Source: Ponticaulis sp. (GTDB lineage Bacteria; Pseudomonadota; Alphaproteobacteria; Caulobacterales; Hyphomonadaceae). From it: a DNA stretch of 34,073 nucleotides. Positions 7,046 to 21,157 of the stretch are shown here, piece by piece; within the stretch, counting starts at the first letter, position 1; each line of letters opens with the position of its first letter. The translations under genes and the position numbers were made by a program. Below the pieces are notes generated by a model. It worked only from the letters and a program-made list of their open reading frames with translations. It did no database searches and was not told the DNA's origin. The stretch is taken from the NCBI GenBank assembly GCA_002723155.1, contig PBNO01000002.1, positions 194,211 through 228,283 on the forward strand, read 5' to 3'.

Positions 7046-7695
7046 TTCCAGAGTCCTTTCTTCGGGACGCCCTTAATCTTCAAAATCTCGACTTCAGCGG
7101 TCAGCATATGGTCGACAGCTTCACACATATTGAAGCACGCCTCCATGTCCTTGCCCCAGACATAGAAGCCATGGTCGCGGATGATATAGGCAGGCACAGG
7201 CAGATCGGCGATAAATTCTTCCAGCGTGTTTGCGAGCGCCGGCATATCCTGCGTGTTATCGACCGCGCGGAGACGAACCTTCACAGCATGCGTTTCAACG
7301 CCCGGAAAGGCTTTCAGCATCTCATAGCCTGCCAGCATGATATCGCCATGCATGAGCCGCGTCAGCACAACGCCTGCAGTCGAGTGCACGTGCAGAATTG
7401 CGTTCGCATCCGGATAGTGCTTGTAAATCTGGGTATGGAGCAGCGTTTCGGCAGAGGGCTTCTTCTCTTCCAGAGCTTTGCCCTCAGCATCTACGCGCAT
7501 CACATCCTGAATGTGCAGACGGCCCTTATGATTGCCAGACACCGTCACCGCGAATGCGCCATCACCCAGCCGCATTGAATAATTGCCGCTGGAGGCAGGC
7601 GCCATGCCTTTCGCATCCAGAAGACGCCCCGCCTCGCAGATATGGCTCGCCGCAGTATCGAAATCGACGGGCCCGTCAGACTTCAGGCTGATCAT
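7042..7695 (-). CDS. mtnB: Methylthioribulose-1-phosphate dehydratase
   Basis: Zinc enzyme of the class II aldolase/adducin family that dehydrates methylthioribulose-1-phosphate to the diketone substrate of MtnC. 217 residues. Family motifs are SSGNYS (35-40), the zinc-binding HVHS (102-105) following the helix KPSAETLLHTQIYKHYPDANAILH, and IIRDHGFYVWG in the C-terminal third, which supplies another zinc His. Its start overlaps the stop of the upstream aminotransferase gene by 4 nt (ATGA), and its stop overlaps mtnD the same way. The mtn context separates it from fuculose- or ribulose-phosphate aldolases of the same fold. Confidence 0.94.
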   Translation of the reverse strand: MISLKSDGPVDFDTAASHICEAGRLLDAKGMAPASSGNYSMRLGDGAFAVTVSGNHKGRLHIQDVMRVDAEGKALEEKKPSAETLLHTQIYKHYPDANAILHVHSTAGVVLTRLMHGDIMLAGYEMLKAFPGVETHAVKVRLRAVDNTQDMPALANTLEEFIADLPVPAYIIRDHGFYVWGKDMEACFNMCEAVDHMLTAEVEILKIKGVPKKGLWK

Positions 7696-8876
7696 TTTGC
7701 AAACCCTTTCCGCAGCAGTTCGGCTGCCAGCTGCAGCGTTTCCGGCTTCTTACAATAGACGAAACGGATTTTGGTGCGCCCGTCTGCCTTATCGCGATAG
7801 AAGCTGGAGCCCGGCACGGTTGCAATACCGACCTCATCAATCATCCATTTGGCAAAGGCGACGTCATTGTCGTGGCCGGTGCGCGCCATCAGATCGGATG
7901 CGTCCGTCATGATGTAGTAAGCGCCCTGCGGGTGATAGCAGGTAAAACCAACCTCCTGCAGAACCGGCATCAGAATATCGCGCTTCAGCGCATAGGTCGC
8001 GCCAAGCTCGCCATAATACTCATCGCCAAAGCGTAGCGCATGGGCCGCGCCCTCCTGCAGAGGCGCCGCCGCGCCAACGGTGAGGAAGTCATGGACTTTA
8101 CGGATCGCATCGGAGGCTTCCGGCGGCGCGATGATCCAGCCGATCCGCCAGCCTGTCGCTGAATAGGTTTTGGAAAGACCGGTGATCGTCACCGTGCGCT
8201 CTGCCATGCCCTCAATATCGGCCATGCGCAGGTGCGGGCCTTCATAAATAATGTGCTCGTAAATCTCGTCCGTGATCGCAACGACATCCCATTTCTGGCA
8301 AAGCTCGCCAATGAAGGTCAGCTCTTCTTTTGAGAAGACTTTGCCTGTCGGGTTGGATGGCGTGTTGATGATGATGGCGCGCGTCTTGTCGTTGAACGCT
8401 GCGGCCAGCTCTGCCTCATCAAAGCTCCAGTCCGGCGCGCGCAGTTTCACAAAGCGCGGCACAGCGCCTGACAGGATCGCGTCAGGGCCATAATTCTCAT
8501 AGAACGGCTCGAAGACAATCACTTCATCGCCCGGATCAACCAGCGCCATCATGGTCGCCATCATCGCTTCGGTTGTGCCACAGGTGACGGTGATTTCGCG
8601 CTCGGTATCAGGGCGCACGCCATAATGGCGCTCAGTCTTCTCCGCGATGGCATTGCGCAGATTCACAGTGCCCCAGGTGATGGCATACTGGTTGAAATCC
8701 TCACGGATCGCCGCAACAGCCGCCTCTTTCAGCGCTTCAGGGGCCGCAAAATCCGGAAAGCCCTGCGCAAGGTTCACGCCCGGTTTATCGCCGCCGCGCG
8801 CATTGAACTGGCGCGTCATACCGCGAATGACAGACTCGGCGAATACGCCAGCTTTTTTGGACGTGTGAATTGGCAT
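7692..8876 (-). CDS. Class I aminotransferase, probable methionine (KMTB) aminotransferase of the salvage pathway
   Basis: PLP-dependent fold type I aminotransferase of 394 residues, closest in style to YbdL/kynurenine-oxoglutarate transaminases. Motifs: GFPDF near 39-43, SNPTGK (174-179), Asp203 in ITDEIYEH, and the Schiff-base Lys236 in SKTYSATGWRIGW. As first gene of the mtn operon, overlapping mtnB by 4 nt, it very likely performs the last salvage step, transamination of 4-methylthio-2-oxobutanoate to methionine (the MtnE role). That assignment rests on position; the amino donor is unknown, though related enzymes often use glutamine. Its 184-nt upstream region holds a long hairpin but no riboswitch that I recognise. 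Confidence 0.88.
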   Translation of the reverse strand: MPIHTSKKAGVFAESVIRGMTRQFNARGGDKPGVNLAQGFPDFAAPEALKEAAVAAIREDFNQYAITWGTVNLRNAIAEKTERHYGVRPDTEREITVTCGTTEAMMATMMALVDPGDEVIVFEPFYENYGPDAILSGAVPRFVKLRAPDWSFDEAELAAAFNDKTRAIIINTPSNPTGKVFSKEELTFIGELCQKWDVVAITDEIYEHIIYEGPHLRMADIEGMAERTVTITGLSKTYSATGWRIGWIIAPPEASDAIRKVHDFLTVGAAAPLQEGAAHALRFGDEYYGELGATYALKRDILMPVLQEVGFTCYHPQGAYYIMTDASDLMARTGHDNDVAFAKWMIDEVGIATVPGSSFYRDKADGRTKIRFVYCKKPETLQLAAELLRKGFAK

Positions 8877-13378: not shown

Positions 13379-13696
13379 ATGAGTGACACATCCGACAACC
13401 CTTTCGACCATGGCGAGATTGATGATGCCATTCACGGGCGGCTTCGCCTCGGCATCATGGCCTATCTCTCAGCAGCGTCACCTGCGATTTTCGGAGAGCT
13501 GAGAGACAAGGTGAACGCCACGGATGGCAATCTCTCAACTCATCTGCGCAAGCTCGAAGATGCAGGATATGTGGAGATAGAAAAGCGCTTCGAAGGCCGA
13601 CGCCCACAGACGCGCATCCATCTGACCGATACCGGCCGGAAAGCCTGGCTCGACTACCTCGCAAGACTTCGCTCGCTGCTCGACGCCGCCGAGTAG
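13379..13696 (+). CDS. Winged-helix transcriptional regulator (HTH_34/ArsR-like)
   Basis: 105-residue single-domain winged-helix protein. The segment HGRLRLGIMAYLSAASPAIFGELRD (19-43) and the recognition helix TDGNLSTHLRKLEDAGYVEI (48-67) are followed by a basic wing KRFEGRRPQTRIHLTDTGR (69-87) and a C-terminal dimer helix. This matches the HTH_34 'winged helix DNA-binding domain' family, related to ArsR and MarR. No metal-binding Cys or His cluster is seen, so a metal sensor is unlikely. It ends the two-gene operon and is the obvious candidate to bind the two operators at 12676 and 12715. Confidence 0.87.
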   Translation: MSDTSDNPFDHGEIDDAIHGRLRLGIMAYLSAASPAIFGELRDKVNATDGNLSTHLRKLEDAGYVEIEKRFEGRRPQTRIHLTDTGRKAWLDYLARLRSLLDAAE

Positions 13697-13760: not shown

Positions 13761-14924
13761 TTAAGCGACCACCTCAGGAAGTGCTCTGCAGAACTTATCC
13801 ACGTCTTCGATAAAGCCCATCGAGACGCGGGTCCATTCATTATAGTCCATGTACTGGCCACGAACCGAGATCATCCGGTCAGCCATTGCCTGCTGAACGG
13901 CGTTAGCCTCTTTACCCGACTTAAAGTAGACGAAGTTCGTCTGTGACGGCAGATACTCGAGACCAAGCGTATCTAAGGTTGTTGTAACCATTTCTCGGGC
14001 TTCGACAATCTTTGCCTTTGAATAATTTACAAATTCCATGTCGTTATAGCTGCCGATGGCCGCTGCGATGGAGGTCGACGGCGTCCAGCTCATGACGACA
14101 GACTGGATTTTCGCCGCGGTTTCAGGCGCCGCAATCAGATAGCCCATACGGATACCCGCCATGCCGTAAAGCTTGGAGAAGGTACGCGTAACAATCACAT
14201 CATGACCTTCTTTGATGAGCGGAACACAGGTCGTGCCCTCTTCATCATCAGCCAGCTCGATATAGGCCTCGTCCACAATGACCGGCGCCTTCGCCGCCAT
14301 GCGTGCGACTGCTGCGCGGATTGTGTTGCCCGGCGTCACAAGTCCTGTCGGGTTGTTCGGGTTACAAAGCTGAACAGCGCCCGTGCTTTCGGTAACAGCA
14401 GCCTCCATGGATGGAAGGTCGATCTCCATGTCGGCCGTCAGCGGAATACGCTGAATGTCCGCCATGCCGAGGTTAGCCGCGTAAAGCGCAGTCGTATCCC
14501 AGAAGAGACGCGGCGCCACGATTGGGCCATTCGGACCGTATGTCAGCGCGATTGCAGACAGGATTTCGCCGGAACCTGTAGAGAGCGCGATGTGATCAGG
14601 TGTCACGCCATGGCGCGCCGCGATCATGGCTTTCAGTTCTTCGGTCGCGCCCTGCGCCGTATAGTAGGCACCCTTAGATGCCGCATAGGCGATCATGTCT
14701 TTGGCAGACTGCGCCGGACCATACGGATTTTCGTTGCGCGACAGAAGCGCCACGCCCTGAGGCGCACCGAGCAGATACGGGTTTTCCACCGCAGCATTCT
14801 CTGGTGTGAACGCACCCTGAGCGACTGCCTCACCGTTTGTTGATGTGGCGCATGCTGTCAGGCCTGCGACTGCTGCGCCTGCTGATCCTGTCAGCAGAAA
14901 ACGTCTTGATAGATCAAATGCCAT
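13761..14924 (-). CDS. Tat-exported lipoprotein of the PLP-dependent aminotransferase class I/II family
   Basis: 387 residues. Residues 1-25 form a twin-arginine signal (SRRFLLT, Arg7-Arg8) ending in a lipobox LTAC with Cys25, so the protein should be exported folded and lipid-anchored. After a linker (26-50) comes a full fold type I PLP domain resembling histidinol-phosphate aminotransferase: SRNENPYGP (62-70), CNPNNPTG (187-194), Asp218 in IVDEAYIE, and the Schiff-base Lys251 in FSKLYGMAGIRMGY. All cofactor-binding residues expected are present, so it looks active. Tat export fits a protein that loads PLP in the cytoplasm. It lies 39 nt after the TauE/SafE gene. The substrate is unknown; histidine synthesis is unlikely outside the cytoplasm. 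Confidence 0.88.
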   Translation of the reverse strand: MAFDLSRRFLLTGSAGAAVAGLTACATSTNGEAVAQGAFTPENAAVENPYLLGAPQGVALLSRNENPYGPAQSAKDMIAYAASKGAYYTAQGATEELKAMIAARHGVTPDHIALSTGSGEILSAIALTYGPNGPIVAPRLFWDTTALYAANLGMADIQRIPLTADMEIDLPSMEAAVTESTGAVQLCNPNNPTGLVTPGNTIRAAVARMAAKAPVIVDEAYIELADDEEGTTCVPLIKEGHDVIVTRTFSKLYGMAGIRMGYLIAAPETAAKIQSVVMSWTPSTSIAAAIGSYNDMEFVNYSKAKIVEAREMVTTTLDTLGLEYLPSQTNFVYFKSGKEANAVQQAMADRMISVRGQYMDYNEWTRVSMGFIEDVDKFCRALPEVVA

Positions 14925-14963
14925 GTCCGTAACTCCCTTTTACCTTTCCGTTCTGATCTCTCA

Positions 14964-15803
14964 TCAACCCGCGACGGCCTTGTAGAAAACGTATGCTGAG
15001 GTCGCGATCAGGTAGATTCCGAAGTATCGTTTGAGCTTCACGCCATCGAGACTGTGCGCGAGCTTGGCGCCAATGGGCGCGGTGAAGATCGACATGCTGA
15101 CAATGGAGAGCGCAGCAATCAGGTTCACATACCCGATAGACCCGGGCGGAAGCCCCGCCTCACCAAAGCCGACGATCATATTACTGATAGTACCCGGCAC
15201 CGCGATAATAACTCCAAAGCCGGCCGCAGTCGCGACAGCCTGGTGGATAGGTCGCTGACAGGCCGTCATCACCATGACAGCAGGCGTACCGCCACCAATA
15301 CCGAGTAGTGCCGAGAACCCGCCAAGGAATGTTGCGATTGGAGCCAGCACGAAGCCTTTCGGCATTTCTGCGCTGAAATGAAACCGGACATTGCCCTTTG
15401 CCGGGAACACGAAGTGCAGACCCATCAGGAAAACGCCAACCGAGAAGATCAGTTTGAGCGCTGAACCGTCCAGCACACGTGTCAAAATTGTTCCGAGAAT
15501 GGCCCCTATAGTCAGCCAGGGGGCCCAATCCCTGATAATCTGCATGTCGACCGCGCCTTTTTTATAGTGCGCCTGCGCCGACCTGAAACCTGTAACCACA
15601 ATGGTTGCGAGTGATGTTGCGACAGCCATCTTCATCAGAATGGAGTCACTGAAATCAAAGAACTCAAACACCACAATAAGCGTTGGAACGACAACAAATC
15701 CGCCGCCAATGCCAAATAATCCGGCTACCAGCCCTGCTGCCAGACCTGCCCCCATCAAAATGAAGACCATCTGCACCAGCTGGAGCCAACTATAATCACC
15801 CAA
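14964..15803 (-). CDS. Sulfite exporter TauE/SafE family permease
   Basis: 279-residue integral membrane protein of the TauE/SafE (DUF81) family, whose studied members export sulfite, sulfoacetate or other organic acids. About eight hydrophobic segments are visible. The family's glycine-rich repeats occur twice: AGLVAGLFGIGGGFVVVPTL (about 22-41) in the first half and GGFSALLGIGGGTPAVMV (about 160-177) in the second, as expected for an internally duplicated carrier. It is upstream of, and probably cotranscribed with, the lipoprotein aminotransferase. The substrate is not determinable from sequence; the neighbour suggests an amino- or sulfur-containing acid. Confidence 0.9.
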   Translation of the reverse strand: MGDYSWLQLVQMVFILMGAGLAAGLVAGLFGIGGGFVVVPTLIVVFEFFDFSDSILMKMAVATSLATIVVTGFRSAQAHYKKGAVDMQIIRDWAPWLTIGAILGTILTRVLDGSALKLIFSVGVFLMGLHFVFPAKGNVRFHFSAEMPKGFVLAPIATFLGGFSALLGIGGGTPAVMVMTACQRPIHQAVATAAGFGVIIAVPGTISNMIVGFGEAGLPPGSIGYVNLIAALSIVSMSIFTAPIGAKLAHSLDGVKLKRYFGIYLIATSAYVFYKAVAG

Positions 15804-15972: not shown

Positions 15973-18633
15973 TTAGAGGTCTGCGCGAAGCTTCAGGTAG
16001 TAATAGCCACCCTGCCAGTCGACGCTTGAGTCTGAGCGGTAGATACGACCGCAGCAGCTGTCGCCAATCGCAGGATCTGCAGCATCCGGGTACTCGTCGA
16101 ACACGTTACGTGCACCGAGCGAGAGACGAACTGCATCGCTGATCTGGTAAGAGGCTTCGACGTCAACCATAACTTCAGGGCTGAAGTTTTGAACGAGACT
16201 GTTCACAGTCTGGCCGCCACCACTGTCAGAGTTGTCGTACTCGCCATAATAGCTCGCACGACCGAGGAAGGTCCAAGGACCCGCTTCGTGCAGCACAGAG
16301 AATACGCCGCGCCATTCAGGCTGACCGTTTTCAAAGTCGAATGTATCTTCAGCGTTGAAGCCCGGAGCAGAACCGTCGAACTCTGTTTTATTGTAGTTCA
16401 CGGAAGCCGTGAAACTTGTCGTCGATGCCTCTGTGAAAGACGTATTGTAGGTTCCAACAATGTCCACACCTTGGGTGATAGTGTCGAATGCGTTCTGGAA
16501 ATAGAATACACCACCGATCGATTCGGCTCCAACAACTCCGGCATTTACGAGCGCAAGATAGTTATCATACGGATCATTAGGGTCCGTCGGATCTGCCAAC
16601 GCGGGGTCATTTGAGACATCAAGAGTGGAAATTGCGTTTACTCGGTCTTCCAGTTCGATTCGGTAGAAGTCGACTGTCAGAGAGAAATCGTCGAATGAAC
16701 CGGTCCAACCAAGCGTATAGTTGGTCGACTTCTCAGGTGAAAGCGGAACCGCATCAAGTGCTTGCGCAATGGTTCCACCTGCAGGGAAGAGACCCGTTGC
16801 AACCGGGAAGCCGTTAGGCAGACGCGTAGATACGTTGGTCGTACCTTGCTGGCCTGGTGTCGGCGCGCGGAAACCTGTGCCAACGGAACCACGAAGACCC
16901 ATGGTTTCTGTCAGATCGAACTGACCGGCGACCTTCCACACGAGTTCCGAGTCGAAGTCGGAATAGTCTTCAAAACGGAGTGCACCTTGCAGGAAGAGAC
17001 GGTCCGTGACGTCGCCGGAGAGGTCTGCATAGAGCGCATAAGAGTCACGCGTGTACTCACCAGAAAATGCCGGAGAATAACCCGGGAAGCCGTTAGAGCC
17101 GACGCCAACAACCTGATACACAGGGTCGCTGGTATCCGCACAGTTCAAGCTGGAACCATTTGCGATAACTGCCAGACCTGCAGCCGTTGGCGCACCCGCG
17201 TTACAGAAACCCCAAGGGTCTTGTGTCGCGTATGGACCAGCAGCGAACGAAGCAGGGTCACCACCAACGAGTTCATAAGACTCATCCATATAGCTCGCAC
17301 CGAACGCGAAGGTGAGCGGGCTCGCCATAGCGTCGAGATCAATATCGTAAGTGAAGTCAGCCTGGAGCTGCATCTCTTCGTTGATCAGATCACCCGGATT
17401 GAAACGTGTCGGAGACATATTGCCCAGCGACGGGTTCACCGTATTCGCAAGCGTGTACTGGATCTCATTGTGACCAAAGCGAGCGCTCAGGTCGTACGTG
17501 AACCCCTCAGAGAACTCACCCTGAATACCACCAACGCCGGAATAGTCGATCACTTCACCGAAGAAGCGCGGCGTGAAACCGCCCGGGAAGAAGAAGAGCG
17601 GGCTCCAGACAGAACCATCCTGCAGGCGGAGATTCTCAATCGTTCCATTGCCCGGGTAACGATAGAAGAACGAACCGTCCGCTTCGCTCTTTGAATAGTT
17701 TGCAAACGCATAGAGAGATGTTGTCGGGCTGAGATCATAACCAGCGTTTACAAAACCACGAAGTGCTTCAGAGTTTGGCTGACCCCATGGCTGAACCACA
17801 TCACCAAAGCCGATATTCGCATCCGGAAGACCCGCAGCAAATGTTGCCGGATCATAACCAGCAATGTTTGTGTCGAAAGAGCCACCCGTCAGGAAGCGTG
17901 GGTCATTTGGATCCACACATGCCCAAGATTCACAATATTCCGCGCTGCGAGATGTCGCGTCGGATGTAGAGCGCTCGATAGAGAAGTTGGCAAAGCCGTT
18001 CTCACCGAGTGGAACGCCGAGGTTTGCAGCGGCTACGAACTGGAAACCGTCGCCTTCATAGTATTGTCCGGTTTCAGCGGTGATCGTAGCGCCTTCTGCA
18101 TCATCTTTCAGGATGAAGTTGATAACGCCCGCAATCGCGTCAGAACCGTAGAGCGCGGCAGCGCCGTCACGAAGAACCTGAACGTTGGCAAGCGCGATCG
18201 CTGGAATTGTCGCGATGTCAGGGCCCTGAGTACCAGAACCACCGATCTGAACCAGCGCCGCGCGGTGGCGACGGTGACCGTTCACAAGAACGAGAGTTTT
18301 GTCTGTCGGCATGCCGCGAAGCTGCGCCGGACGAATGAACGTGCCACCATCCGAGATCGGCTGGCGTGACAGAGAGTAGGATGGAACCAGTGTACGGATA
18401 ATGTCGTTAGCATCCGTGAATGGAACGTTTTCGAGTTCCTCAGAGCTGAGAACATCAACCGGAACCGGCGAATCTGTAACCGTACGCGGCTGACCACGAA
18501 CACCCGTTACAATGACGTTTTCCTGAACCGCTTCCTCATCTTCCTGCGCGAAAGATGCAGGTGCGAACAGTGCTGCTCCCATCGCCATGGCGATGACGGA
18601 CGTCATCAGAAATTTATTTTTGCGTTGACCCAT
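15973..18633 (-). CDS. TonB-dependent outer membrane receptor
   Basis: 886-residue outer-membrane beta-barrel receptor driven by TonB. Signal peptide 1-29 (cleavage after SFA, before QEDEE). A TonB-box-like ENVIVTG is at 38-44, and the plug domain covers roughly 50-180, with LRGMPTDKTLVLVNGHRRHR and VQVLRDGAAALYGSDAIAGVINFILK typical of the broad receptor class found in caulobacters and hyphomonads. The barrel occupies the rest and ends YYYLKLRADL, so the terminal residue is Leu, not the usual Phe. Extracellular loops carry several Cys (CESWAC, CNAG/NCAD, CCGR). The ligand is unknown. GGGGA lies 8 nt before the ATG. The long 333-nt upstream region suggests independent transcription. Confidence 0.93.
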   Translation of the reverse strand: MGQRKNKFLMTSVIAMAMGAALFAPASFAQEDEEAVQENVIVTGVRGQPRTVTDSPVPVDVLSSEELENVPFTDANDIIRTLVPSYSLSRQPISDGGTFIRPAQLRGMPTDKTLVLVNGHRRHRAALVQIGGSGTQGPDIATIPAIALANVQVLRDGAAALYGSDAIAGVINFILKDDAEGATITAETGQYYEGDGFQFVAAANLGVPLGENGFANFSIERSTSDATSRSAEYCESWACVDPNDPRFLTGGSFDTNIAGYDPATFAAGLPDANIGFGDVVQPWGQPNSEALRGFVNAGYDLSPTTSLYAFANYSKSEADGSFFYRYPGNGTIENLRLQDGSVWSPLFFFPGGFTPRFFGEVIDYSGVGGIQGEFSEGFTYDLSARFGHNEIQYTLANTVNPSLGNMSPTRFNPGDLINEEMQLQADFTYDIDLDAMASPLTFAFGASYMDESYELVGGDPASFAAGPYATQDPWGFCNAGAPTAAGLAVIANGSSLNCADTSDPVYQVVGVGSNGFPGYSPAFSGEYTRDSYALYADLSGDVTDRLFLQGALRFEDYSDFDSELVWKVAGQFDLTETMGLRGSVGTGFRAPTPGQQGTTNVSTRLPNGFPVATGLFPAGGTIAQALDAVPLSPEKSTNYTLGWTGSFDDFSLTVDFYRIELEDRVNAISTLDVSNDPALADPTDPNDPYDNYLALVNAGVVGAESIGGVFYFQNAFDTITQGVDIVGTYNTSFTEASTTSFTASVNYNKTEFDGSAPGFNAEDTFDFENGQPEWRGVFSVLHEAGPWTFLGRASYYGEYDNSDSGGGQTVNSLVQNFSPEVMVDVEASYQISDAVRLSLGARNVFDEYPDAADPAIGDSCCGRIYRSDSSVDWQGGYYYLKLRADL

Positions 18634-18966
18634 AACTTATTTCCCCAGTCAGATAGCCAGCCTGGAGGACACGCGACTCCACACACGAGTTGCGTTTCCG
18701 ACCAGAGTTCTGGCGAACTAAACATTTGCTGAAAAAGTGCTGCCCGGCCCTTGGGCTGCGATGTAAGGAAATCCCGGGTCGAAGATAGCACCCCCCATTG
18801 GACGCCGCCCGAGACTTCATTTCACAAGCCTAGCCCACCAGCGAAACTAGACGCTGTAAACTGTCATGCATTTTTGCTTTAGGGAGGGATGTATTGCTGC
18901 ATTCTTTTGATGCAGTGCGATAATTTAACGGTCATTTAATGAGCAGGCGCAGCAGAGGCGGCCCTG
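18634..18966. other. Long intergenic leader between ANTAR gene and TonB receptor
   Basis: This 333-nt region has no convincing gene on either strand. It should contain the receptor promoter (minus strand), but I could not assign a clear hexamer pair. An inverted repeat, CTGCAT (18897-18902) with ATGCAG (18910-18915) and a 7-nt spacer, and a direct repeat of ATTTAA 11 nt apart near 18923-18938 are the only visible structures. They could be regulator sites. Confidence 0.5.
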
Positions 18967-19560
18967 TCAGTCGAGCAACCCAGACAGTGCAAGATAGCTT
19001 TCTGCAACTTCTCGCATTGTCTTGCTTTGTTTCATCGCGGTTTTTCTGAGGAGGTCATACGCCTCTGATTCTTTTAAGCCGCGCTGTTCCATCATGACGC
19101 CCTTGGCGCGATCGATGACTTTGCGCGCCTCAAGCGTACCTTTGGTTTCCGCCAGTTCGACCTGTAGCTTGCGAGACTGCTGGAAGCGTTCTCGGGCAAT
19201 CGCTGCGAGTGTGCCAATGCGATGGGGCTGCATGCCATCAATCACACAAGAGCTTGCGCCAGCACGCAGGGCCTTCTGGGCATCTGCTGCCTCACCCGAT
19301 GCGGAGAAGATGAGAACAGGGCACGGTGACCGTGCTTGCAGAGCTGAAATCTGTGAGAGCATTTCATCATCGATCACATCACAATCGATGATGAGGAGCG
19401 TGTCCTCAGAGAACCCTGAGAAATGGCCTTTCAGAAAGGCATCGCGGTAGATGATTGAAAAGGCGCTGTCCGCAAACGCTTTCGAGAAGACATCAAAATG
19501 CCCTGCCCCAAAGGACACGATCACGACTGATTCTGACATAACGCTATCGCCCGACACCAT
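18967..19560 (-). CDS. ANTAR domain response regulator (AmiR/NasT type)
   Basis: RNA-binding antitermination regulator family. A pseudo-receiver-like N-terminal domain (about 9-118, with LLIIDCDVIDDE at 55-66 where the phospho-acceptor region would be) is joined by a short coiled coil to a C-terminal ANTAR domain (about 138-192: DRAKGVMMEQRGLKESEAYDLLRKTAM is the signature). The open frame runs much further upstream, across the lpd terminator into lpd, so a short start is needed. I chose ATG 19560, with AAAGG 7 nt before it, giving 197 residues, the usual NasT size; ATG 19539 is possible. No sensor such as NasS and no nitrate or amidase genes lie nearby, so its target RNA is unknown. Confidence 0.87.
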   Translation of the reverse strand: MVSGDSVMSESVVIVSFGAGHFDVFSKAFADSAFSIIYRDAFLKGHFSGFSEDTLLIIDCDVIDDEMLSQISALQARSPCPVLIFSASGEAADAQKALRAGASSCVIDGMQPHRIGTLAAIARERFQQSRKLQVELAETKGTLEARKVIDRAKGVMMEQRGLKESEAYDLLRKTAMKQSKTMREVAESYLALSGLLD

Positions 19561-19691
19561 TGCCATGCCTTTACTCACCCAAATCTTCAAACCGTCAGTG
19601 GCCTGAAATACCGGTAAAATGACTATTGGCGCTGCGTTCCGGATTAGCACTCGATAATTTGAATTCTGCGTGATCGGACGATGTTTCGCCC

Positions 19692-19726
19692 AAAAAAAAT
19701 GCCTCCCCTGATCACAGGGAAGGCAT
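19692..19726 (-). terminator. Intrinsic terminator of lpd
   Basis: Stem ATGCCT-C-CCCT (19699-19709) with AGGG-A-AGGCAT (19716-19726), one mismatch and a 6-nt loop, followed on the minus strand by seven or more T (19692-19698). It lies 25 nt after the lpd stop and isolates lpd from the ANTAR gene. Confidence 0.88.
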
Positions 19727-19750
19727 TTTCGGGCATAATATTGCTGCAGA

Positions 19751-21157
19751 TTACATCTGCATCGTCCAACCTTCGACGCCCATTGCCGCCTGACGGATCG
19801 CCTCAGACAGAGTCGGGTGAGCGTGGCAGGTGCGCGCAACGTCTTCAGAAGACGCTTTGAATTCCATCGCGACGCAGATCTCGCCGATCAGTTCACCAAC
19901 GCCAACGCCCAGCATGTGAACGCCGAGGATTTCGTCAGTTGTCGCGTCTGCGAGGATTTTCACAAAACCCTCGGTTTCGTGGTTACAGCGCGCGCGGGAG
20001 TTCGCCATGAATGGGAACTTACCTGTTTTGTACTTGATGCCAGCATCTTTGAGCTGCTGCTCATTCTTGCCGACCCATGCAATCTCAGGGCTTGTGTAAA
20101 CGACGCTCGGCACGAGATCATAATCAACGTGACCTGCTTTACCTGCGATCAGCTCAGCAACGGCAGCGCCATCATCTTCGGCTTTGTGCGCCAGCATCGG
20201 GCCAGCAACACAGTCACCAATCGCCCAGACGCCTTCAACATTCGTCTTGAAGTGATCGGTCGTGTCAATCACGCCGCGCTGGTTCACACCAACACCGATT
20301 GTTTCAAGGCCAAGACCTTCAGTGTACGGCTTACGGCCGATTGCCATAATGACAACGTCCGCATCGAGGTGCTCTTCATCGCCGCCTTTTGCAGGCTCGA
20401 CTGAGACTTTCAGTTTTGTCTTCAGCTTCTCAATGCCGGTCACTTTCGTGCCCATGCGGAATTTGAGACCCTGCTTTTCAAAAATGCGTTTGGACTGTTT
20501 GGAGATTTCCGCATCAGCGCCCGGCATGATGTGGTCGAGGAATTCAATCACTGTCACTTCAGAACCGAGACGTGACCAGACAGAGCCCATCTCGAGACCG
20601 ATAACGCCGGCGCCGATCAGGGTCAGCTTTTTCGGAATTTCTTTCAGAGACAGAGCGCCGGTGTTCGTGACGATGCGCTCTTCGTCAATCTCGATGCCTG
20701 GCAGGCTTGCAGGCTCAGAACCTGTCGCGATGACGATGTTCTTCGCGCCGACTTTTTCAGTGCCGCCAGCGTTCAGCTCGATCTCGACTTCACCTTTGCC
20801 GACAATCTTACCTTTGCCGGCGTAGTGCTTGACCTTGTTCTTCTTCATGAGGAAAGCGACGCCTTCGGTGAGGCCTTTCACGGCCTCATCCTTTTGAGCC
20901 ATCATTTTCTCAAGGTTCACAGCGAGGCCGGACACTTCAATACCCATGCCTTCGAAGTCGTTCTTCGCAGCAGCGTAATACTCAGACGCGTGCAGAAGCG
21001 CTTTGGAAGGAATACAGCCAACGTTGAGGCAGGTACCGCCCAGCGTGTCACGCATTTCAATAATTGCAGTTTTCAGTCCAAGCTGACCGCAACGGATTGC
21101 GCAGTTGTAACCGCCGGGGCCGCCCCCGATAATAACGACGTCATAAGTTTCAGACAT
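19751..21157 (-). CDS. lpdA: Dihydrolipoyl dehydrogenase
   Basis: FAD-dependent E3 component that reoxidises dihydrolipoamide in 2-oxoacid dehydrogenase complexes and passes electrons to NAD+. 468 residues, standard length. FAD motif GGGPGG (11-16); redox-active disulfide Cys43-Cys48 in GGTCLNVGCIPSK; the NAD-binding GAGVIGLEMGSVW segment near 177-189; second FAD motif AIGDCVAGPMLAHKA; and the catalytic His-Glu pair in HAHPTLSE (445-452). It stands alone here, without E1/E2 genes directly adjacent, and has its own terminator. Which complex it serves (2-oxoglutarate or pyruvate dehydrogenase) is not shown in the window. Confidence 0.96.
   Translation of the reverse strand: MSETYDVVIIGGGPGGYNCAIRCGQLGLKTAIIEMRDTLGGTCLNVGCIPSKALLHASEYYAAAKNDFEGMGIEVSGLAVNLEKMMAQKDEAVKGLTEGVAFLMKKNKVKHYAGKGKIVGKGEVEIELNAGGTEKVGAKNIVIATGSEPASLPGIEIDEERIVTNTGALSLKEIPKKLTLIGAGVIGLEMGSVWSRLGSEVTVIEFLDHIMPGADAEISKQSKRIFEKQGLKFRMGTKVTGIEKLKTKLKVSVEPAKGGDEEHLDADVVIMAIGRKPYTEGLGLETIGVGVNQRGVIDTTDHFKTNVEGVWAIGDCVAGPMLAHKAEDDGAAVAELIAGKAGHVDYDLVPSVVYTSPEIAWVGKNEQQLKDAGIKYKTGKFPFMANSRARCNHETEGFVKILADATTDEILGVHMLGVGVGELIGEICVAMEFKASSEDVARTCHAHPTLSEAIRQAAMGVEGWTMQM

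What the first reader, a model, noticed from the sequence alone, without database searches (positions are those of the whole stretch)
13761..15803. A Tat-exported, lipid-anchored PLP aminotransferase next to a TauE/SafE permease
Seen: the aminotransferase has SRRFLLT at its N-terminus and a lipobox LTAC, followed by a complete set of PLP-site residues (Asp218, Lys251, NPNNPTG). It follows a TauE/SafE gene by 39 nt on the same strand. Known: fold type I aminotransferases are almost always cytoplasmic, and Tat exports folded cofactor-loaded proteins. Inferred: amino-group chemistry takes place in the periplasm, on a substrate or product that the TauE/SafE carrier moves. An extracytoplasmic transaminase would need its own amino donor and acceptor, which is unusual.
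Basis: partly seen in the sequence, partly recalled or inferred. Interest (0 to 1): 0.72.

Follow-up and report, generated by a model that had tools for sequence, protein, structure and literature searches.

The report
Exported transaminase in a TonB uptake operon
An alphaproteobacterium carries an enzyme that moves amino groups and, judging by its conserved export signal, is sent folded into the space between its two membranes, encoded with an outer-membrane uptake receptor and an inner-membrane carrier beneath a kind of RNA switch mostly known from nitrogen genes; it hints that some bacteria strip amino groups from nutrients before these enter the cell.

Summary
The 387-aa PLP aminotransferase (AT) at 13761-14924 (-) has an intact fold-type-I active site and a Tat/lipobox N-terminus, 39 nt behind a TauE/SafE gene. 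The twin arginine is in 86 of 86 distinct proteins of at least 38% identity, the window's included; the lipid anchor is mostly a trait of close relatives. TauE lies directly upstream in 52 of 84 such loci, Gammaproteobacteria among them. The window's own leader is imperfect. Tat-exported transaminases have a precedent, PtaA of Pseudomonas (PMC6206403), which forms a separate clade. Most likely the operon takes up an amino-bearing nutrient through the receptor and transaminates it in the periplasm, under nitrogen-type antitermination; substrate, acceptor and TauE's cargo are unknown. New variant of a known kind.

The parts
13761..14924 (-). Tat-signal, lipobox PLP aminotransferase (AT), 387 aa, HisC/PtaA-like fold type I
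14847..14924 (-). Coding region of the Tat signal and lipobox: RR at residues 7-8, LTAC with Cys25 (residues 1-26)
   Evidence: sequence; R7 R8 invariant; lipobox rule; not tested with a signal predictor
14964..15803 (-). TauE/SafE-family carrier, 279 aa, TTG start
   Evidence: directly upstream of AT in 52 of 84 loci
15973..18633 (-). TonB-dependent receptor, 886 aa (blast cluster c1), plug and barrel
   Evidence: nearest solved relatives by sequence are PirA, BtuB and the colicin I receptor, over the plug only
18634..18966 (-). Leader between ANTAR gene and receptor; position of the ANTAR hairpin pair in relatives
   Evidence: RNA model R1 does not hit the window copy
18787..18806 (-). Candidate hairpin P1, GGCGTCC(AATGGG)GGGTGCT, leaning on G-U pairs
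   Evidence: the lowest-energy fold of this piece is not the hexaloop
18739..18759 (-). Candidate hairpin P2, imperfect: loop of 7 instead of 6
18967..19839 (-). ANTAR-domain antiterminator (ORF 290 aa from TTG; homology covers only about the last 200 aa, so the true start is probably internal)

Best explanation
A nutrient-uptake operon, probably ANTAR-controlled, with a periplasmic transamination step. Shown by sequence: AT has a conserved Tat signal, a full PLP site and the arginine (R366) that in this fold usually holds a carboxylate (recalled); it is encoded with a TBDR and a TauE carrier; relatives have an ANTAR-type hairpin pair ahead of the TBDR. Inferred: the TBDR brings an amino-bearing compound, most likely a peptide or amino-acid-like nutrient, into the periplasm; the exported, lipid-anchored AT, carrying PLP from the cytoplasm, moves the amino group to an oxo acid; TauE moves an anion (the oxo product inward, or the oxo-acid acceptor outward) across the inner membrane; the ANTAR protein lets RNA polymerase through the leader when the nutrient or nitrogen state calls for it.
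For: Tat signal in 86/86 proteins >=38%. Active-site residues invariant; AF2 model pLDDT 87.4, best solved match 3ly1, TM 0.89 by target length. TauE directly upstream in 52/84 distinct loci and a c1 or c6 TBDR upstream on the same strand within 3 kb in 46/84. A c1-type TBDR also lies about 2 kb from a PtaA-like gene of another family of the order (L244). Co-occurrence in 105 family genomes: AT orthologue 49, c1 TBDR (>=53% identity) 46, both 38, Fisher p 5e-11, uncorrected for kinship; ANTAR match 334-510 nt above the TBDR match in 36 of 46. Hairpin pairs in 16/22 leaders, shuffle mean 0.31, maximum 3; 54 A1/G4 hairpins against 8-17 for other loop letters. In 11 pairs 17 two-sided changes against 5.5 shuffled (pairs were picked for having stems). 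ANTAR targets are mostly nitrogen genes (PMC3369931, passages). A membrane dipeptidase (M19) sits inside the L049 operon (TBDR-M19-TauE-AT) and near AT in Novosphingobium L078; peptidase-type genes within two genes of AT in 8 of 31 loci.
Against: No substrate, donor or acceptor is known. The window's own leader lacks clean hairpins, although genus mates L156 and L054 have them. 11 of 49 genomes with AT lack the c1 TBDR, and 8 of 46 with the TBDR lack this AT. TauE is absent from AT's side in 32 of 84 loci. The peptidase count is weak: the distant-gene control (75 proteins, shorter on the whole) also shows an M19, a gamma-glutamyltranspeptidase and a Clp protease, and only 25 families are listed per scan. 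The TBDR plug resembles siderophore and B12 receptors.
Confidence: 0.45

Rival explanations
1. Metallophore processing, as in PtaA: AT trims or tailors the amino group of a siderophore or other metal ligand that the TBDR imports (or that the cell makes and exports).
For: PtaA does this chemistry on pyoverdine in the periplasm (PMC6206403); window AT is 30% identical to a PtaA; the TBDR plug is nearest to PirA, BtuB and the colicin I receptor; a c1-type TBDR also stands near a PtaA-like gene.
Against: PtaA cut-off failed (200 of 500 bits) and PtaA with its kin is a separate, fully supported clade; ANTAR control points to nitrogen. No evident siderophore synthesis gene among the window genes scanned or the neighbour families listed, but one search lists 25 of 98 families and two AMP-binding enzymes in it were not resolved. 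The plug similarity is generic.
Confidence: 0.25
2. TauE belongs functionally to the TBDRs, not to AT: it is the inner-membrane step of the uptake route and its closeness to AT is a by-product.
For: In G056 a 57% TauE match starts 66 nt behind a c6 TBDR, where one search found no AT match at E<=1e-40; TauE gone from eight TBDR-AT operons.
Against: TauE and AT genes overlap by 11 nt in L048, L049, L051 and L053, and stay together in Microbulbifer, SAR86 and a Halieaceae record where no TBDR of the two clusters lies upstream within 3 kb.
Confidence: 0.3
3. Export signal not functional: AT is a cytoplasmic HisC-like enzyme.
For: Most fold type I aminotransferases are cytoplasmic (general knowledge).
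Against: RR kept in 86/86 proteins down to 38% and in the PtaA clade, whose founder is known to be Tat-exported; HisC cut-off not met (204.9 of 276.55 bits).
Confidence: 0.04

Closest known systems
PtaA, periplasmic transaminase A of Pseudomonas (NCBIfam NF051461)
   Same: Tat signal, HisC-like fold type I PLP transaminase, periplasmic site of action
   Different: 30% identity; separate clade; no lipobox seen in the five printed; tailors pyoverdine, gene usually outside the pyoverdine cluster (PMC6206403); neighbours of the five PtaA genes were not examined here
PvdN of Pseudomonas
   Same: Tat-exported PLP enzyme, needs PLP bound before export (PMC6206403)
   Different: Other reaction (decarboxylation keeping the amino group); its sequence was not compared here
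HisC / histidinol-phosphate aminotransferase, nearest solved 3ly1, 4r2n, 4wbt
   Same: Fold and catalytic residues
   Different: HisC is a cytoplasmic histidine-synthesis enzyme (recalled); cut-off not met
ANTAR antitermination (NasT/NasR, AmiR, EutV)
   Same: Receiver-like domain plus ANTAR domain; top PDB matches 1s8n, 6wsh, 4akk, 1qo0 (that these are Rv1626, EutV and NasR for the first three is recalled); paired A1/G4 hexaloop hairpins in relatives' leaders
   Different: Target is a TonB receptor, carrier and exported transaminase; the main text of PMC3369931 has no occurrence of TonB or aminotransferase, its supplementary tables were not seen
TauE/SafE carriers
   Same: Pfam TauE, 141 bits
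   Different: Cargo unknown; sits behind TBDRs

Membership tests
PtaA (NF051461) | Curated score cut-off 500 bits | tested here: not met
   200.2 bits; 5 of 398 phylum genomes pass
PtaA (NF051461) | Tat signal on a HisC-like transaminase | tested here: met
PtaA (NF051461) | Converts glutamate of pyoverdine to alpha-ketoglutarate | not testable with these tools
   needs biochemistry
PRK09105 (NF006580) | Curated score cut-off 444 bits | tested here: not met
   258.2 bits, although the match covers residues 4-386, signal included
HisC (TIGR01141) | Curated score cut-off 276.55 bits | tested here: not met
   204.9 bits
Aminotransferase class I/II (PF00155) | Gathering score and PLP-site residues | tested here: met
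   160.5 of 19.7 bits; K251, D218, Y221, R259, R366 invariant
Tat-dependent lipoprotein | Twin arginine, hydrophobic stretch, lipobox cysteine | tested here: met
   sequence rule and conservation; processing and localisation not testable
TauE/SafE (PF01925) | Gathering score | tested here: met
   141.1 of 32.6 bits
ANTAR regulator | PF03861 above gathering score | tested here: met
   68.2 of 27.3 bits; one of two ANTAR genes in the genome
ANTAR target RNA | Two hairpins with hexaloops, A at 1 and G at 4, ahead of the regulated gene | tested here: inconclusive
   Present in 16 of 22 leaders of the set, with two-sided changes in 11 picked pairs; in the window P1 depends on G-U pairs and P2 has a 7-base loop, model R1 misses it, no Rfam match

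The most novel reading that the evidence does not exclude
A new way to assimilate nitrogen: an ANTAR-controlled pathway in which a TonB receptor feeds an amino compound to a lipid-anchored Tat transaminase, so that the amino group is collected in the periplasm onto an oxo acid that TauE supplies from inside, and only the resulting small amino acid is taken in.
Probability: 0.2. Interest if true: 0.8.

Novelty: new variant of a known kind. Interest (0 to 1): 0.55.

Why it matters
Transamination outside the cytoplasm has one worked example that I found, PtaA, and there it is still only assumed that the cofactor is somehow regenerated in the periplasm (PMC6206403). Here a second, separate clade of exported transaminases comes with receptor and carrier genes in Hyphomonadaceae, sphingomonads and Gammaproteobacteria, and in the first of these with an RNA-level regulator as well. 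That makes substrate, acceptor and purpose open to plain genetics in environmental bacteria.

Tried and rejected
Rejected: (1) that AT is a PtaA or a HisC by membership; both cut-offs failed. (2) That the lipid anchor is the essential feature; it is missing in most relatives below 60% identity. (3) A one-to-one AT-TauE bond; eight genomes lack TauE beside AT, and TauE-like pieces of 32 and 34 residues in L013 and L021 suggest it was lost there. (4) A specific intrinsic terminator or sigma-70 promoter: the scan found no more than shuffles. (5) The full 333-nt leader does not fold better than shuffles as a whole (z -1.06). (6) Rfam gave nothing at E<=1.

PMC10134870 and PMC8552747 matched 'antar' through 'Antarctic' in the passages shown. 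Other ANTAR papers were seen as a listing only.

Limits of counts: start codons were chosen by script as nearest to the expected place, so like starts are partly by construction. Leaders shorter than 200 nt (4 of 31 loci) and near-duplicates (5) were left out. The 11 pairs were picked for having two hairpins with stems of 4 or more at close spacing, so '88 of 88 cells paired' is by construction and only the two-sided changes inform. L046, L072 and L073 had merged with identical proteins. That L083 holds one of the two M20 genes is read from its blast cluster with L087. The control set was not matched for protein length. In one search only 8 candidates a genome were scored, so TBDR absences are not firm. 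11 of the 13 strongest hits are sequences the RNA model was built from.

Full report
WHAT IS THERE. The window lies in a 3.84-Mb genome (G000, contig 2) whose family, by contigs of equal length, includes a Henriciella and a Hyphomonas record. On the minus strand, in order of transcription, stand an ANTAR-domain gene (18967-19839), a 333-nt leader, a TonB-dependent receptor (15973-18633), a TauE/SafE carrier (14964-15803) and the aminotransferase AT (13761-14924). Downstream of AT a winged-helix gene runs the other way (13379-13696 +).

THE ENZYME. AT is a class I/II aminotransferase. Its PLP-site residues and R366 are invariant in an alignment with 18 relatives of 31-82% identity, and so are R7 and R8 of the signal. 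The AlphaFold model has mean pLDDT 87.4, with confidence under 50 only in residues 1-6 and 13-36; its best solved matches are HisC-like enzymes, 3ly1 first. Whether 3ly1 or the others are exported is not known to me. By curated cut-offs AT is neither HisC, nor PRK09105, nor PtaA.

EXPORT. RR with a hydrophobic stretch: 86 of 86 distinct proteins at >=38% identity (window included), 66 of 69 below, the three misses being late starts chosen by my script. A stricter rule gave 80 of 96; all 16 others show RR in the printed text, mostly with an acidic residue behind it. The window's frame is open only 5 codons above the ATG. The genome also holds a second exported-type transaminase with a lipobox (L002/L239); I recognised no TauE or TBDR among the ORFs listed beside it, but did not scan them. 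Three relatives of this genome with printed starts lack a signal (L003, L005, L006). TatC is encoded. The lipobox is in 48 of 53 close relatives and in 2 of 9 and 0 of 24 in the next bins: in this clade the lipid anchor looks like an addition to an older exported enzyme.

FAMILY TREE. In a tree of 82 proteins without the signal region (quick method, SH-aLRT support), the window AT lies in a 40-row clade of Pseudomonadota (97), and in a 34-row part of it (96) that holds every TauE-linked row of the tree. PtaA and PtaA-like proteins form another clade of 12 (100). Bacteroidota proteins and the second transaminase type of this family form further groups. The order among these groups is unresolved, and the outgroup is one long branch, so I claim no order of origin.

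NEIGHBOURS. TauE is directly upstream on the same strand (within 300 nt) in 52 of 84 distinct loci with AT at >=38% and at least 1 kb of upstream DNA: 3/3, 3/3, 35/46, 5/9 and 6/23 down the identity bins, and in 0 of 67 below 38%. A TBDR of cluster c1 or c6 lies upstream within 3 kb in 46 of the 84. The modules split and recombine: c1-TauE-AT (window), c1-AT with TauE missing (eight genomes of genus code g5), c6-TauE-AT with ANTAR-c1 elsewhere in the genome (G005, G042, G079), c6-M19 dipeptidase-TauE-AT facing ANTAR-c1 (L049), and in G056 c6-TauE apart from ANTAR-c1-AT. Such reshuffling of the same parts speaks for one pathway more than one fixed order would. In 105 family genomes AT (49) and c1 (46) occur together in 38 (Fisher p 5e-11, kinship not corrected). 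In some Bacteroidota loci AT relatives stand by a SusD-like gene or an FAD amine oxidase.

REGULATION. An ANTAR match lies 334-510 nt above the c1 match in 36 of 46 genomes. Its relatives of known structure include a putative antiterminator (1s8n), a response regulator (6wsh), a nitrate regulatory protein (4akk) and AmiR (1qo0). The genome's other ANTAR gene lies by a solute-binding-protein-like gene and a molybdopterin oxidoreductase whose best models are formate dehydrogenase and assimilatory nitrate reductase, no cut-off met; that it is the nitrate regulator, and the one here therefore dedicated, is inference. ANTAR proteins bind two small hairpins whose six-base loops have A first and G fourth, and their predicted targets are mostly nitrogen genes (PMC3369931, passages). 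In 22 non-redundant leaders (window's included) I find such pairs, 18-50 nt apart, in 16; 200 dinucleotide shuffles give 0.31 on average and 3 at most; the A/G loop gives 54 hairpins where the other 15 letter pairs give 8 to 17. In 11 pairs picked for their stems there are 17 two-sided changes against 5.5 in shuffles; that all 88 cells pair is by choice of the pairs. A covariance model's 16 best hits in 105 genomes (E <= 0.003) all lie below the ANTAR gene and, where the contig goes on, above the receptor; 11 are training sequences and 5 are not (G071, nearly a copy of G053, and G039, G072, G025, G065). The 17 weaker hits were not followed.

AGAINST. The window's own leader is a poor example and is not one of the 16: P1 rests on G-U pairs, P2 has a seven-base loop, the model misses it, and the only hit in its genus is a weak one in G084 (E 0.096). 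Genus mates L156 and L054 have clean pairs with a longer spacer. I therefore hold ANTAR control as likely for the family and unproven for this genome.

HOW IT MOST LIKELY WORKS. Shown: parts, order, conservation. Inferred: the receptor brings in an amino-bearing nutrient, AT transaminates it in the periplasm, TauE moves an anion, ANTAR opens transcription. Peptidase-type genes within two genes of AT in 8 of 31 loci (M19 twice, S9 twice, M20 twice, Met-zincin, DUF2817; that DUF2817 is peptidase-like is recalled) lean to peptides or amino acids; the control of 75 more distant genes shows an M19, a gamma-glutamyltranspeptidase and a Clp protease, and each scan lists only 25 families, so the lean is slight. 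The metallophore reading, by analogy to PtaA, stays open.

KNOWN OR NEW. What I have not seen described is the separate clade with its lipid anchor, the receptor-carrier linkage and the ANTAR leader. In the searches made (listings, with passages of PMC6206403, PMC9569983, PMC3369931, PMC10134870 and PMC8552747) no paper on this operon showed; most subscription journals are not held.

Noticed in passing
G000 contig 15, L239:7704-8873 (+): The same genome has a second Tat-type, lipobox transaminase (32% identical) resembling another clade; no TauE or TBDR was recognised by eye among the ORFs listed beside it.
   Followed up: partly
L117, L118, L122, L125, L138, L147, L148: In these Bacteroidota loci the exported transaminase relative follows an FAD amine oxidase (cluster c13) and precedes a cluster (c10) with a Hint-module match (34 bits, cut-off 29.7) (one member of each cluster scanned).
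   Followed up: no
L121, L130, L131, L137, L140: Transaminase relatives beside a SusD-like gene (cluster c29), a roughly 1050-aa gene (c19, SusC by position, not scanned) and a 370-aa gene without Pfam match (c4).
   Followed up: no
L244 (G137, same order): A PtaA-like gene scoring 414 bits, under PtaA's cut-off of 500, has a c1-type TonB receptor about 2 kb away; Caulobacter vibrioides also rang in the PtaA control, under the cut-off.
   Followed up: partly
L174 and L190 (G207, G187): Two exported-type transaminases of different subclades point away from each other a few kb apart, one of them with TauE upstream and a TBDR downstream.
   Followed up: no
window 7692-8876 (-): Another class I/II aminotransferase, without an RR signal in its printed start region, lies about 5 kb away.
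   Followed up: no
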